A DNA stretch of 64,000 nt from Klebsiella pneumoniae (GTDB taxonomy: Bacteria; Pseudomonadota; Gammaproteobacteria; Steroidobacterales; Steroidobacteraceae), in the NCBI GenBank assembly GCA_945860725.1, contig CAMAQZ010000002.1, positions 1 through 64,000 of the forward strand, written 5' to 3'. A program made the translations under genes and the position numbers. The notes beneath the pieces were generated by a model. That model was not told where the DNA came from. It saw only the letters and a program-made list of their open reading frames with translations, and made no database searches. The first letter of the stretch is position 1. The number at the start of each line of letters is the position of its first letter. This document shows positions 23,583 to 29,435 of the stretch, piece by piece.

Positions 23583-25040
23583 TCAGTCGGTGCACGACGA
23601 GCTGGGCAACACCTTGCCAGGGTTCATGATGCCGTTCGGATCGAAGGCTTGCTTGATGACGCGCATCAACCCGAGCTCGACCGGCGATGCGTAGCGCTGC
23701 AGCTCCTCGACCTTCAGCCGGCCGATGCCGTGCTCGGCACTGAACGACCCACCGTGGGCACGCACCAGGTCGTGTATGGCACGCTTGACCCGATCCTCAT
23801 GAGGTTTTAGCAGGTCTGAGTCCCGCTGCGCCGCGGCGAGCGTGGCAGCCGGTCCCAGGTTGAAGTGCAGGTTGCCGTCGCCGACATGGCCGTAGCATAC
23901 GAGCTGCGCCATGGGTGCCTCGCGCGCGACCCACGCCGAGGCCGCCTCGACGAACGCCGGGAGCCGGTCGATGGGCAGCGAGACATCATGCTTGAGACTC
24001 GGGCCATCGCGGCGCTGGGCCTCGGGGATGTTCTCCCGCAGGCGCCAGAACTCCCGCCGCTCGCGTTCGCCCTGAGCGAGCGCCGCATCGGTGGCGAGGC
24101 CCGACTCGAACGCCGCACCGAGGGCGTCCTGCAGGATCGAATTGAGCGGATCATCCGCGCGCGCGCTCGTGAGTTCGCAGAGCACGAACCACGACGATGG
24201 GCCCGAGAGCGGCGCACGCATGTCCGGCAGGTGCCGAAGCACCAGTTCAAGGGCGACCCTTGGCAGCAGCTCGAAGCTCGACACCCGATCACCGCTTGCA
24301 CTACGCAGCGCACCGAGGAGCGTCACCGCCGCCTGCGGGTCCGGCACCGCGACGAAGGCCGTCGCGATCGCGCGCGGCGGTGGGAACAGCCGTAGCGCAG
24401 CGGCCGTGATTACCCCGAGCGTCCCCTCGGCGCCGATGAAGAGGTGCCGCAGGTCGTAGCCGGTGTTGTCCTTGCGCAGCGCATCGAGGCTCGAGAGCAC
24501 GCGGCCATCGGCAAGCACCACCTCGAGACCGAGCACCAGTTCGCGCATCATCCCGTAGCGCAGCACCTGCACGCCGCCTGCATTGGTGGCGAGGTTGCCC
24601 CCGATCTGACAGCTGCCCTCCGAGCCGAGCGACAAGGGGAAGAACCGCCCAGCCGCAGCGGCCGCCTGTTGTGCTTCGGCGAGCACCAAGCCCGATTCCA
24701 CCACCATCGAATCATTGGCGGGGTCGATACGCCGTATGGCACGCATGCGCCGCAGTGACAGTACGAGCTCGGTGCCCGACTCGTTTGGGGTGGCGCCGCC
24801 GCAGTACCCGGTGTTGCCCCCCTGCGGTACGACACCGATACCCCTTGCGTCGCAGAACGCGAGCAACTGCGAGACCTCGAGGGTGCTGCGTGGCAAGGCG
24901 ATGGCGAGGGGCTTGCCGTGATAGAGCCGACGATGGTCGACGCCCGCGGCCGCGAGCGAAGCAGGATCGGTCGAGATGAGTGCCTCGCCGAAGCGCGCCT
25001 GCAGCTGCGCGAGCGGCGTGGCTGCGCCGCCCGATATCAT
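23583..25040 (-). CDS. FAD-linked oxidase (GlcD / D-2-hydroxyglutarate dehydrogenase type)
   Basis: 485 aa. The FAD-binding type 4 (PCMH) domain has GVVPQGGNTGYCGGATPN, PLSLGSEGSCQIGGNLATNA and HLFIGAEGTLGVITAA. The C-terminal cap domain has CYGHVGDGNLHFNL, GGSFSAEHGIGRLK and the end motif DPNGIMNPGKVL. Known relatives oxidise D-2-hydroxy acids. Its ATG overlaps the stop of the upstream cyclopropane-synthase-like gene by 4 nt. That recalls the methyltransferase / FAD-oxidoreductase pairs (TmsB/TmsA) that make 10-methyl fatty acids in actinobacteria, an alternative role I cannot exclude. Confidence 0.88.
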   Translation of the reverse strand: MISGGAATPLAQLQARFGEALISTDPASLAAAGVDHRRLYHGKPLAIALPRSTLEVSQLLAFCDARGIGVVPQGGNTGYCGGATPNESGTELVLSLRRMRAIRRIDPANDSMVVESGLVLAEAQQAAAAAGRFFPLSLGSEGSCQIGGNLATNAGGVQVLRYGMMRELVLGLEVVLADGRVLSSLDALRKDNTGYDLRHLFIGAEGTLGVITAAALRLFPPPRAIATAFVAVPDPQAAVTLLGALRSASGDRVSSFELLPRVALELVLRHLPDMRAPLSGPSSWFVLCELTSARADDPLNSILQDALGAAFESGLATDAALAQGERERREFWRLRENIPEAQRRDGPSLKHDVSLPIDRLPAFVEAASAWVAREAPMAQLVCYGHVGDGNLHFNLGPAATLAAAQRDSDLLKPHEDRVKRAIHDLVRAHGGSFSAEHGIGRLKVEELQRYASPVELGLMRVIKQAFDPNGIMNPGKVLPSSSCTD

Positions 25041-26314
25041 GTGGCGAGCTGCGACGGTAGCCGACAGCCGGGCTTGGTGAGCAGCAGTTGCACATCACCC
25101 AGTTGCCGTTCGGCGAACCCGCCCTCGCAGTAGCAGAGATAGAACTCCCACATGCGCACGAAGGAGTCGGGATAGCCGAGCGTACGGACTGCGTCACGGT
25201 TGGCCATGAAGTTCGAGCGCCACTCGCGCAGGGTGCGCGCGTAGTGCGGTCCGATGTCCTCGAGGTGGAAGATCTTGAGGTCGGTGACGCGGGTCAGGGA
25301 CTCGCTGATCGCCTGCACGCTCGGGATGAAGCTGCCCGGGAAGATGAATCGCTGGATGTAGTCGACCGACTTCTGCGCCTGGGCGTAGAACTGGTCCTGC
25401 AGCGTGATGGCCTGCAGCAGCATCGCGCCGTGCGGCTCGAGCAGCGCCGCGCACTTGGCGAGGTAGGTGTCGAGGTACTGCGCGCCGACCGCCTCGATCA
25501 TCTCGATGGACATGGCCTTGTCGTAGCGGCCCTTTAGGTCACGGTAGTCCTCGAGCAAAAGCGTGATTCGGTCCGTGAGCCCGGCGCGCGCGATCATCTC
25601 GCGCGCATGATCGTGCTGCTCGCGCGAGATGGTGGTGGTGGTGACGTGGGCGCCGTACTGCGCGGCGGCGTGGATCGCGAGGCCGCCCCAACCGGTGCCG
25701 ATCTCGACGACGCGGTCACCGGGGCGCAGCCGCAGCTTGCGGCAGACCGCTTCGAACTTTGCGACCGAGGCCTGTTCGAGCGTGGTCGAGTCGTCCGCGA
25801 AGATGCCGCAGGAGTAGGCCATCGTCGGGTCGAGCATGAGCTCATAGAGCGCATTGCCGAGATCGTAGTGCGCGGCGATGTTACGGGCGCTGCCCTGTCG
25901 GCTGTTGCGATTGAGCCAGTGGAGGATCTTGTGCAGCGGCGTGCTGAGCCAGGCCCAACGGCCGTCCATGCCGTCCATGACCGCACGGTTGGCGACGAAC
26001 AGGCGCACGAGCGCCGTGAGATCGTCGCAACGCCAAAGATCTTTGATGTAGGCGTCGCCTGCGCCCACCGTGCCGCCGAAGGCGGCGTCGGCGAAGAACT
26101 GCGGGTCGCGTACCTCGACGGTCACCGAGAGGTCGAGGCGGGCGGTGCGATCGCCGAAATCGTGGCGTTGACCCTCTGGCTCGATCAGCGTCAGCGCCCC
26201 GTCCTGCAGCCTCGACAACTGGCCGAGCAGCAGACGGCGACCAAAACGGGCAAGTGAACTTGATCGAGCGGTCGCACGGTCGGTCTCGCGGGGGATGATG
26301 GTGGGTGCGGACAT
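25037..26314 (-). CDS. Cyclopropane-fatty-acyl-phospholipid synthase family methyltransferase
   Basis: 425 aa SAM-dependent methyltransferase. The N-terminal region is the lipid-domain type seen in CFA synthases (ALTLIEPEGQRHDFGDR). The catalytic part has NIAAHYDLGNALYELMLDP, YSCGIF, the SAM loop VVEIGTGWGGLAIHAA, SREQHDHA, SIEMIEAVGAQYLDTYL and FIFPGSFIPS. It acts on unsaturated acyl chains of membrane phospholipids; the product (cyclopropane or methyl branch) depends on partners. It lies in a five-gene same-strand run with desaturase, FAD amine oxidase, DUF1365 and FAD oxidase. Confidence 0.92.
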   Translation of the reverse strand: MSAPTIIPRETDRATARSSSLARFGRRLLLGQLSRLQDGALTLIEPEGQRHDFGDRTARLDLSVTVEVRDPQFFADAAFGGTVGAGDAYIKDLWRCDDLTALVRLFVANRAVMDGMDGRWAWLSTPLHKILHWLNRNSRQGSARNIAAHYDLGNALYELMLDPTMAYSCGIFADDSTTLEQASVAKFEAVCRKLRLRPGDRVVEIGTGWGGLAIHAAAQYGAHVTTTTISREQHDHAREMIARAGLTDRITLLLEDYRDLKGRYDKAMSIEMIEAVGAQYLDTYLAKCAALLEPHGAMLLQAITLQDQFYAQAQKSVDYIQRFIFPGSFIPSVQAISESLTRVTDLKIFHLEDIGPHYARTLREWRSNFMANRDAVRTLGYPDSFVRMWEFYLCYCEGGFAERQLGDVQLLLTKPGCRLPSQLAT

Positions 26315-26315
26315 A

Positions 26316-28420: not shown

Positions 28421-28451
28421 GTCGATGGGTCTCTCGAATGCGGTCTGCAGG

Positions 28452-29435
28452 TCAGGCGATGCGCCGGGGTGAGCGATCGCGGATCGCGACCGGCACGGGC
28501 TTGAGGTCCCAGATGATGCCGAGCCAGGACATGACTTTGAGGATGTAGTAGGTGATGTCGATCTCCCACCAGTAGAAACCTTGCCGGGTGGAGCTCGGGA
28601 AATGGTGGTGGTTGTTGTGCCAACCTTCGCCAAGGGTCACGAGCGCGAGCAGCCAGTTGTTGCGGCTGGTGTCGCCGGTGCGATAGCGCTGCCGACCGAA
28701 TACATGCGAGAGCGAATTGATGGTGTAGGTGCCGTGGTAGCAGGCCACCGTGGAGATGAAAAACCCCCAGACCAACATCTGTCCCGCGCTGGTGCCGAGC
28801 TCGGGCGCCTGATGTGCGAGCAGGGCGCCCAAGCCGAACATGCCGATCGCAAGGGCGACGGGCACGAGGATGTCGAAACGGTCGAGCCAACGCAGTTCCG
28901 GGAACTGCAGCAGGTCGCGGACCCTTCGCAGGTCCGGCTGGAAACCGCGTGCCGTCAGGAACCAGCCCATGTGTGAGCGGATGAAACCGTGCTGCAGCGG
29001 GGAGTGCGTGTCCTCGGGTTTGTCGGAGTGGGCATGGTGGTGGCGGTGGTGCGCCGCCCACCAGACCGGTCCGCGCTGTACCGCCGAAGCCCCGAGCAAG
29101 CCGAAGATGAACTGGCCGATCCGCGAGGTCTTGAAGGACCGATGCGAGAAATAGCGGTGATAGAAGCCGGTGATGGCGAACATGCGCACGAGGTAGGCCG
29201 CGATCGCGAGGCCGACCGCGACCGGACTCCAGCCGACCCAGATCACGGCGAAGCAGGCGAGGTGCATGCCGATGAAGGGCAAGATGCGCGTCCATTCCAC
29301 CCGGTCGGGGATCTCGGGCAACGCTGCGCCGTCCTTCGGGACGACATGCTGCCCGGTGTCGAACCAGGCGATGAACGCCCACCCGAGTCGGCGCACGGCC
29401 GATCGGGCGGGGGCTGGAGCCGCACCGTCGGGCAT
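28452..29435 (-). CDS. Delta-9 acyl-CoA / acyl-lipid fatty acid desaturase
   Basis: 327 aa membrane di-iron desaturase. All three histidine boxes are present: HRYFSH, HHRHHHAH and HNNHHHFP. Four transmembrane helices and GFYWWEIDITYYILKVMSW near the C-terminus match the stearoyl-CoA-desaturase-like family. It introduces a cis double bond that could supply the substrate for the downstream CFA-type methyltransferase. It sits 9 nt after the htpX stop on the same strand, so read-through from htpX is plausible. Confidence 0.93.
   Translation of the reverse strand: MPDGAAPAPARSAVRRLGWAFIAWFDTGQHVVPKDGAALPEIPDRVEWTRILPFIGMHLACFAVIWVGWSPVAVGLAIAAYLVRMFAITGFYHRYFSHRSFKTSRIGQFIFGLLGASAVQRGPVWWAAHHRHHHAHSDKPEDTHSPLQHGFIRSHMGWFLTARGFQPDLRRVRDLLQFPELRWLDRFDILVPVALAIGMFGLGALLAHQAPELGTSAGQMLVWGFFISTVACYHGTYTINSLSHVFGRQRYRTGDTSRNNWLLALVTLGEGWHNNHHHFPSSTRQGFYWWEIDITYYILKVMSWLGIIWDLKPVPVAIRDRSPRRIA

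What the first reader, a model, noticed from the sequence alone, without database searches (positions are those of the whole stretch)
23583..29435. Five-gene lipid-modification run: desaturase, FAD amine oxidase, DUF1365, CFA-like methyltransferase, FAD oxidase
All five genes are on one strand with gaps of 31 nt or less or 4-nt overlaps. Desaturation followed by SAM methylation and two flavin steps could give methylated, cyclopropane or furan-type acyl chains. DUF1365 and the FAD protein have no settled function. The Rhodobacter counterparts belong to the singlet-oxygen response, and this genome also carries carotenoid genes, so a photo-oxidative membrane defence is plausible.
Basis: partly seen in the sequence, partly recalled or inferred. 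Interest (0 to 1): 0.65.

Follow-up and report, generated by a model that had tools for sequence, protein, structure and literature searches.

The report
Furan fatty acid operon, phototrophic bacterium
A light-harvesting, uncultured bacterium carries an operon that very probably turns ordinary membrane lipids into oxygen-scavenging furan fatty acids; the pathway is already known from Rhodobacter and relatives, and the new parts are a sequence mark that tells its methyltransferase from cyclopropane synthases and a predicted barrel fold for its furan-forming enzyme.

Summary
In detail: five same-strand genes with gaps of 31 nt or less or 4-nt overlaps. htpX, 9 nt upstream, was missed and makes six.

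The core (27092-28420, 26316-27095, 25037-26314) is the known furan-fatty-acid set UfaD-UfaO-UfaM, in the order shown to make these lipids in Rhodopseudomonas palustris (PMC7380195). DUF1365 therefore has an assigned role (UfaO). The "CFA-like" protein is not a cyclopropane synthase: it has Gln where CFA synthases have the bicarbonate ligand His266, as do all 69 UfaO-adjacent homologues examined and 11 of 11 unlinked RSP2144-type homologues. The sampled Gln proteins form one clade (100/98). The genome has no canonical CFA synthase and no FabA, so the operon's SCD1-like desaturase may supply the substrate.

The photo-oxidative reading gains support: the same contig carries crtB, bchYZ-like genes and pufL-pufM. 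ChrR/sigma-E regulation does not: ChrR is absent, and the promoter before htpX looks sigma-32-like. The last FAD gene is a D-2-hydroxyglutarate-dehydrogenase relative, not an evident lipid enzyme.

UfaO is modelled (pLDDT 91) as a calycin-like beta-barrel.

New member of a known kind; product chemistry untested.

The parts
30495..30520 (-). candidate sigma-32 (RpoH)-type promoter CTTGAAA-N11-TCACCTCT, 188 nt before htpX
   Evidence: scores 11 of 14 in the window (reached by 5.5% of shuffles), but a comparable site lies upstream of htpX in most same-genus genomes; best are L044 CTTGAAT-N13-CCCCATTT, and L051, L065, L066 CTTGAAA-N13-CCCCACCT (0 of 200 shuffles reach them). Consensus match only; no transcription data.
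29445..30332 (-). htpX, membrane zinc metalloprotease (quality control); probable first gene of the transcription unit
   Evidence: NCBIfam NF003965 432 bits, above its cut-off; 9 nt before the desaturase; linked in 15 of 15 same-genus loci but only 2 of 15 family loci.
28452..29435 (-). membrane fatty-acid (acyl-CoA type) desaturase, likely supplier of the cis double bond that UfaM methylates
   Evidence: PF00487; closest solved structures are stearoyl-CoA-type desaturases, 4ymk E 4e-25 and 4zyo; three His boxes (HRYFSH, HHRHHHAH, GEGWHNNHHHFP). Only this one of the genome's three PF00487 proteins is like that: BLASTP of the other two against it finds no significant match.
27092..28420 (-). 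UfaD homologue: FAD-dependent desaturase of the methyl-branched acyl chain (to the conjugated diene)
   Evidence: PF01593/PF13450 with an N-terminal FAD Rossmann motif; next to UfaO in the loci examined; same gene order as RPA2571-2570-2569 in PMC7380195.
26316..27095 (-). UfaO homologue (DUF1365): forms the furan ring with O2
   Evidence: PF07103 E 2e-82; DUF1365 is named as the UfaO domain in PMC7380195; invariant residues include G11, H15, R17, N130, K160, S165-P166-F167; model pLDDT 91.1, pTM 0.89.
25037..26314 (-). UfaM homologue: SAM-dependent methyltransferase of the CFA family
   Evidence: PF02353 E 9e-84; Glu, Gln, Ile, Tyr at E. coli Cfa 239/266/268/317; in the Gln clade, 100/98 support.
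25412..25414 (-). codon CAG = Gln301, the residue in place of CFA-synthase bicarbonate ligand His266
   Evidence: invariant Q301 in alignment A3; bicarbonate ligands Glu239/His266/Tyr317 from PMC11387697.
23583..25040 (-). D-2-hydroxyglutarate-dehydrogenase-like FAD enzyme, probably co-transcribed but probably not a furan-lipid enzyme
   Evidence: Closest solved: 3pm9 (424 bits) and D2HGDH 6lpn (320 bits), with the GHxGDGNLH and SAEHGxG motifs kept; next to UfaM in 15 of 15 genus loci but 5 of 15 family loci.

Best explanation
This is a furan-fatty-acid (FuFA) biosynthesis operon in an uncultured, bacteriochlorophyll-type phototrophic gammaproteobacterium. Proposed sequence: the SCD1-like desaturase puts a cis double bond into a saturated acyl chain. 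UfaM (25037-26314) methylates that bond on phospholipid with SAM and, lacking the full bicarbonate site that closes the cyclopropane ring, releases a methyl-branched trans-alkene. UfaD (27092-28420) oxidises this to the conjugated methyl-diene with FAD and O2. UfaO (26316-27095) adds an O2-derived oxygen and closes the methyl-furan. The furan chains then act as sacrificial scavengers in a membrane exposed to light, bacteriochlorophyll and oxygen. The unit is probably read from a heat-shock (RpoH)-type promoter through htpX rather than by sigma-E/ChrR. Shown here: genes, order, conservation, the Gln signature, phototrophy genes, absence of ChrR, FabA and a canonical CFA synthase. Taken from the literature for homologues: the chemistry of UfaM, UfaD and UfaO. 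Inferred: product in this organism, the substrate-supplying role of the desaturase, promoter type, physiological role.
For: Same gene order as R. palustris RPA2571-2570-2569, shown necessary and sufficient for the monomethyl FuFA (PMC7380195). In Halomonas the three genes are consecutive and its ufaM makes the 11-methyl-18:1 intermediate in E. coli (PMC12089945). Desaturase-FAD-hypothetical-CfaS occur consecutively in the Stenotrophomonas sigma-Ec/ChrR regulon (PMC11832516); two Stenotrophomonas records show the same four families (L190, L191). Gln at position 266 in 69 of 69 UfaO-adjacent CFA proteins versus His in E. coli Cfa, Lactobacillus CFA and all alignable other homologues. Independent test: 12 genomes of one family (f71); in L145, a family member, UfaD-UfaO sits beside sigma/ChrR genes and is followed by a symporter, DUF3833 and an SDR gene, as at R. 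sphaeroides RSP1087-1093. Eleven of these genomes have an unlinked Gln protein, next to a DNA photolyase in 5 of 5 examined, as RSP2143-2144; canonical CFA synthases in four of these genomes keep His. Gln clade monophyletic, 100/98. Host has pufL/pufM, crtB, bchYZ-like genes. No FabA above cut-off.
Against: No lipid or expression data exist for this organism. The sequences of the tested R. sphaeroides and R. palustris proteins could not be fetched by name; the link to them rests on gene order and on genomes that share their synteny. Substrate position is unknown: UfaM was shown on cis-vaccenate, whereas an SCD1-like enzyme would give delta-9 chains. Other routes to unsaturated chains were not searched beyond FabA and PF00487. 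Many genomes with this operon are not phototrophic (31 of 64 puf-negative relatives have DUF1365), so the lipid is not phototroph-specific.
Confidence: 0.86

Rival explanations
1. Cyclopropane fatty acid cluster: the CFA-like enzyme makes ordinary cyclopropane chains and the neighbours are accessory.
For: The protein belongs to PF02353 and its best PDB matches are CFA synthases; the Halomonas ufaM strain also contained cyclic fatty acids, though E. coli makes these itself.
Against: It has Gln in place of the bicarbonate ligand His266 and lies in the UfaO-linked Gln clade; its NCBIfam CFA scores (278 and 276 bits) are far below the curated cut-offs of 600 and 400; conserved linkage to UfaD and UfaO.
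Confidence: 0.05
2. Methyl-branched saturated fatty acid pathway of the BfaA-BfaB (10-methylstearate) type: the CFA-like enzyme makes a methylene or methyl-alkene chain and the overlapping FAD enzyme (23583-25040) reduces it.
For: CFA-family methyltransferase and FAD_binding_4 protein overlap by 4 nt here, as bfaA and bfaB do (PMC5660069); the pairing is constant in the genus.
Against: The FAD protein is closest to D-2-hydroxyglutarate dehydrogenase, 424 and 320 bits, with its conserved motifs kept; NCBIfam scores of 265 bits to GlcD against 36 to DprE1; it is absent from most other loci with the same core; the UfaD-UfaO pair would be unexplained. BfaA itself was not compared directly.
Confidence: 0.06
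3. The core makes FuFA, but as general heat or envelope-stress lipid remodelling coupled to HtpX rather than photo-oxidative defence.
For: htpX linkage and a sigma-32-like promoter in the genus; no ChrR; operon frequent in non-phototrophs; in the Stenotrophomonas study a non-phototroph uses the cluster in superoxide tolerance (PMC11832516).
Against: Phototrophy genes lie on the same contig, 48-61 kb from the operon in six genus genomes. In R. sphaeroides RpoH-II is itself part of the singlet-oxygen response, so an RpoH promoter does not exclude a light role.
Confidence: 0.3

Closest known systems
Furan fatty acid pathway UfaM-UfaD-UfaO of Rhodobacter sphaeroides and Rhodopseudomonas palustris (PMC7380195)
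   Same: Same three protein families; gene order UfaD-UfaO-UfaM as in R. palustris; phototrophic host.
   Different: Gammaproteobacterial; operon also holds an acyl desaturase, htpX and a D2HGDH-like gene; no ChrR; no DUF3833, SDR or symporter genes as in R. sphaeroides.
Stenotrophomonas maltophilia smlt2375-smlt2367 (Cfa9) operon, sigma-Ec/ChrR regulon (PMC11832516)
   Same: Acyl-CoA desaturase, FAD oxidoreductase, hypothetical protein and CfaS2 in the same order (L190/L191 in the same genus confirm DUF1365 and a Gln-type enzyme).
   Different: That operon goes on with a second CFA-like gene, two membrane proteins and a lipocalin and is ChrR-controlled; here the second CFA-like type sits on another contig (C50) and ChrR is missing.
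Cyclopropane fatty acid synthase (E. coli Cfa, 6BQC)
   Same: Same fold family, SAM site, Glu239, Ile268 and Tyr317 positions kept.
   Different: His266 is Gln; separate clade.
BfaA-BfaB 10-methylstearate pair (PMC5660069)
   Same: CFA-family methyltransferase overlapping an FAD_binding_4 gene by 4 nt.
   Different: FAD protein is of D-2-hydroxyglutarate dehydrogenase type; UfaD and UfaO present.
Mycolic acid methyltransferase MmaA1 (8RAQ)
   Same: CFA-family enzyme that leaves a methyl branch beside a trans double bond (own knowledge) and also departs at the bicarbonate site.
   Different: MmaA1 keeps His and has Asp at the Glu239 position (alignment).

Membership tests
Furan fatty acid (Ufa) operon | UfaM, UfaD and UfaO homologues present | tested here: met
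   PF02353, PF01593 and PF07103 proteins; identity of each by order and linkage.
Furan fatty acid (Ufa) operon | gene order UfaD-UfaO-UfaM as in R. palustris and Halomonas | tested here: met
   papers read.
Furan fatty acid (Ufa) operon | methyltransferase belongs with UfaM rather than CFA synthase | tested here: met
   Gln signature 69/69 adjacent and 11/11 unlinked f71 homologues, the five examined being photolyase-adjacent; clade support 100/98.
Furan fatty acid (Ufa) operon | makes 9M5-type furan fatty acid from 18:1 phospholipid chains | not testable with these tools
   Needs GC-MS of an isolate or of a host expressing the genes.
Cyclopropane fatty acid synthase | complete bicarbonate site Glu239, His266, Tyr317 | tested here: not met
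   Glu and Tyr present, His replaced by Gln301 (ligands from PMC11387697).
Sigma-E/ChrR singlet-oxygen regulon | ChrR anti-sigma factor in the genome | tested here: not met
   TIGR02451: no candidate at all in the window's genome, 98.85% complete; two relatives (G030, G032) have ChrR on the same contig as DUF1365, about 5-6 kb away.
Sigma-E/ChrR singlet-oxygen regulon | TGATCC-N16-19-TAAG type promoter upstream | tested here: not met
   Best site no better than shuffles in the window (91% of shuffles as good).
BfaA-BfaB 10-methyl fatty acid pair | BfaA-type reductase next to the methyltransferase | tested here: inconclusive
   Neighbouring FAD protein is D2HGDH-like; BfaA itself was not available for comparison.
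D-2-hydroxyglutarate dehydrogenase | FAD_binding_4 + FAD-oxidase_C with GHxGDGNLH and SAEHGxG motifs | tested here: met
   Alignment to 3pm9 and to D2HGDH 6lpn; substrate not tested.
UfaO/DUF1365 | PF07103 domain over full length | tested here: met
   Profile positions 1-235 of 235, 277 bits.

The most novel reading that the evidence does not exclude
UfaO is not a flavin- or haem-type monooxygenase but a calycin-like (lipocalin, nitrobindin, spirocyclase-like) beta-barrel that binds the methyl-diene acyl chain and turns an O2 adduct (for instance an endoperoxide formed with singlet oxygen) into the furan without a conventional redox cofactor, so furan formation would itself be a singlet-oxygen-consuming step. 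Alongside it, the His-to-Gln change at the CFA bicarbonate site is the switch that makes UfaM release a methyl-alkene instead of a cyclopropane.
Probability: 0.2. Interest if true: 0.78.

Novelty: new member of a known kind. Interest (0 to 1): 0.48.

Why it matters
Furan fatty acids are antioxidants found from bacteria to fish oil, yet the furan-forming enzyme UfaO has no known cofactor, fold or mechanism, and annotations label the methyltransferase as cyclopropane synthase. A one-residue mark separating UfaM from CFA synthases would let genomes and metagenomes be re-annotated by sequence. The His/Gln swap and the barrel model of UfaO are directly testable. Finding the complete set, with its own desaturase, in a FabA-lacking phototroph of a genus whose family includes lake metagenome bins points to furan lipids in the membranes of uncultured light-using bacteria.

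Tried and rejected
First region requests failed for being one base over the 20 kb limit. Plasmid tblastn for DUF1365 gave 98 named records, all below 60% identity, none of the experimentally tested strains among those listed. The single genome-contig scan returned named relatives (Stenotrophomonas, Xanthomonas, Lysobacter, Nitrospira) but not R. sphaeroides or R. palustris. My first assumption that RSP1089 is a second CFA-like protein was wrong: it is a GPH symporter. My first read of the active-site columns was off by one because the 6BQC chain is numbered one higher; corrected. A cyclopropane product, a BfaAB-type pathway and ChrR control were considered and marked down (see rivals). A sequence-profile search of the PDB with UfaO found nothing even at E = 1. 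Papers in the held library that mention UfaM and were searched do not mention bicarbonate or a Gln signature; subscription journals are not covered.
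Full report
WHAT IS THERE. On the minus strand, read downwards, lie htpX (30332-29445), an acyl desaturase (29435-28452), an FAD amine-oxidase-family protein (28420-27092), a DUF1365 protein (27095-26316), a CFA-family methyltransferase (26314-25037) and an FAD-linked oxidase (25040-23583). Junctions are 9 nt, 31 nt, a 4-nt overlap, 1 nt and a 4-nt overlap.

HOW CONSTANT IT IS. In 15 of 15 same-genus loci all six genes are kept in order. In 15 other loci of the family the desaturase is still next to UfaD in 12, the methyltransferase next to UfaO in 13, the FAD gene next to the methyltransferase in 5 and htpX next to the desaturase in 2. 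UfaD-UfaO-CFA recurs in most sampled genomes across Pseudomonadota and in named records of Stenotrophomonas, Xanthomonas, Lysobacter, Methylophilus, Nitrospira defluvii and bins labelled Planctomycetota and Latescibacterota. So the core is UfaD-UfaO-CFA, the desaturase a frequent partner, and htpX and the last FAD gene lineage-specific neighbours.

WHAT THE CORE DOES. Lemke et al. (PMC7380195) describe UfaM methylating cis-vaccenate on phospholipid, UfaD (RSP1091/RPA2571) making the conjugated methyl-diene, and UfaO (RSP1090/RPA2570, a DUF1365 protein) making the methyl-furan with oxygen from O2. RPA2569-2571 are necessary and sufficient in R. palustris and lie in the order found here. In Halomonas the three genes are consecutive and ufaM yields 11-methyl-18:1 in E. 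coli (PMC12089945).

A TEST OF THE METHYLTRANSFERASE. CFA synthases hold a catalytic bicarbonate with Glu239, His266 and Tyr317 (E. coli numbering; PMC11387697). The window protein has Glu, Gln and Tyr. Of 69 UfaO-adjacent homologues, 69 have Gln at 266 with Glu239, Ile268 and Tyr317 all kept; 14 alignable CFA-like proteins found elsewhere in the same loci keep His. As an independent test I took 12 genomes of one family (f71); the eight f71 loci read had UfaD-UfaO without an adjacent methyltransferase hit. In L145, one of them, the neighbours are sigma and ChrR genes on one side and a symporter, DUF3833 and SDR genes on the other, matching RSP1087-1093. Eleven of the 12 genomes have a strong methyltransferase elsewhere, with Gln. 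In the five examined it lies beside a DNA photolyase, as RSP2144 (UfaM) is numbered next to RSP2143 phrA. Two f71 genomes (G212, G232) have an adjacent copy, also with Gln. Canonical CFA synthases in four of these genomes have His. In a 69-protein tree the 49 Gln proteins form one group, 100/98 support. The signature column was left in the alignment, but one column of 439 is unlikely to carry that support. MmaA1, another methyl-branch-forming relative, departs at the Glu position instead. I found no mention of this mark in the papers I could search.

THE REST OF THE GENOME. PF02353 has three hits: this UfaM, a His/Phe-type CFA-like protein on contig C50, and a UbiG-type protein. There is no canonical CFA synthase. 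FabA gives only a weak sub-threshold match, 23.6 bits against a cut-off of 238. Three PF00487 proteins exist, and only the operon's desaturase is SCD1-like. I infer that it may supply the cis double bond; other anaerobic routes were not searched.

PHOTOTROPHY. The window is bases 1-64000 of a 75,920-base contig. The last 12 kb hold crtB, a crtF-like methyltransferase, two nitrogenase-type subunits as in BchY/BchZ, pufL and the start of pufM. Of 24 genus genomes, 20 have puf genes and 23 have DUF1365. In six the two lie on one contig, 48-61 kb apart. Outside the genus 9 of 10 puf-positive relatives have DUF1365 against 31 of 64 puf-negative ones (one-sided Fisher p = 0.014, not corrected for relatedness).

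REGULATION. ChrR is absent, though two relatives carry it 5-6 kb from DUF1365. Upstream of htpX most genus members have a sigma-32-like pair, in the best cases CTTGAA-N14-CCCCATTT or CTTGAAA-N13-CCCCACCT; the window's own copy is weaker (5.5% of shuffles reach it). The ChrR-type motif is no better than chance in the window. RpoH-II belongs to the singlet-oxygen response of R. sphaeroides (PMC7074977), and an RpoH factor is needed for photosystem genes in Roseateles (PMC10037100), so an RpoH link does not exclude a light role.

THE LAST FAD GENE. It matches D-2-hydroxyglutarate dehydrogenase (3pm9 424 bits, D2HGDH 6lpn 320 bits) with its conserved motifs. I treat it as a metabolic passenger. 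A BfaA-like reductase role is not fully excluded.

UFAO FOLD. AlphaFold models of the window protein (pLDDT 91.1, pTM 0.89) and of a second member (90.6, 0.89) consist of many beta-strands with a long C-terminal helix. Foldseek's best matches for both are calycin-type barrels: a CpcS-like protein (3bdr), nitrobindin-like proteins and lipocalins, with the OssO spirocyclase (7sfp) second for one model and rank 35 for the other. Probabilities of the leading barrel hits reach 0.9-1.0, but E-values are only 0.004-0.15 and TM-scores by query 0.32-0.36. This is a lead, not a proof. No flavin-enzyme fold stands out; of the leading hits, nitrobindins are haem proteins.

VERDICT. A furan-fatty-acid operon of known kind in a new phototrophic lineage, with a regulatory and neighbour arrangement unlike Rhodobacter, plus a usable sequence mark for UfaM and a fold hypothesis for UfaO.

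Noticed in passing
own contig C2 64758-75920 (locus L242), just beyond the window end: Photosynthesis gene cluster: crtB, crtF-like methyltransferase, BchY/BchZ-like subunits, pufL, start of pufM; a CrtI/CrtD-type amine-oxidase-family protein is inside the window at 59791-61287.
   Followed up: yes
L144-L151, L247-L257 (family f71): Gln266-type methyltransferases are unlinked from ufaD-ufaO and sit beside a DNA photolyase where examined, reproducing the R. sphaeroides RSP2143-2144 and RSP1087-1093 arrangement.
   Followed up: yes
G000 contig C50 8513-10126 (L243), and L057, L076, L114 and others: A second, divergent CFA-like family (Glu-His-Phe-Tyr signature, about 25% identity) often accompanies the operon; in this genome it is on another contig. 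Function unknown.
   Followed up: partly
window 30537-31571: VIT1-family (iron/manganese transporter-like) gene directly upstream of htpX, also present near the operon in several genus members.
   Followed up: no
window 22124-23335: Glyoxalase-like protein downstream of the operon, kept in the same place in most genus loci.
   Followed up: no
G000 C4:271-933 and C23:1428-2228 (L245, L246): Two other PF00487 proteins; by eye one has AlkB-like and one delta-12-desaturase-like His boxes.
   Followed up: partly
window 34441-36255: MoaE and ThiF domains joined in one 604-aa reading frame, an apparent fusion.
   Followed up: no
G030:C317 and G032:C74 (L082, L069): Same-family genomes that still have ChrR 5-6 kb from DUF1365, suggesting the window genus lost ChrR control.
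   Followed up: partly
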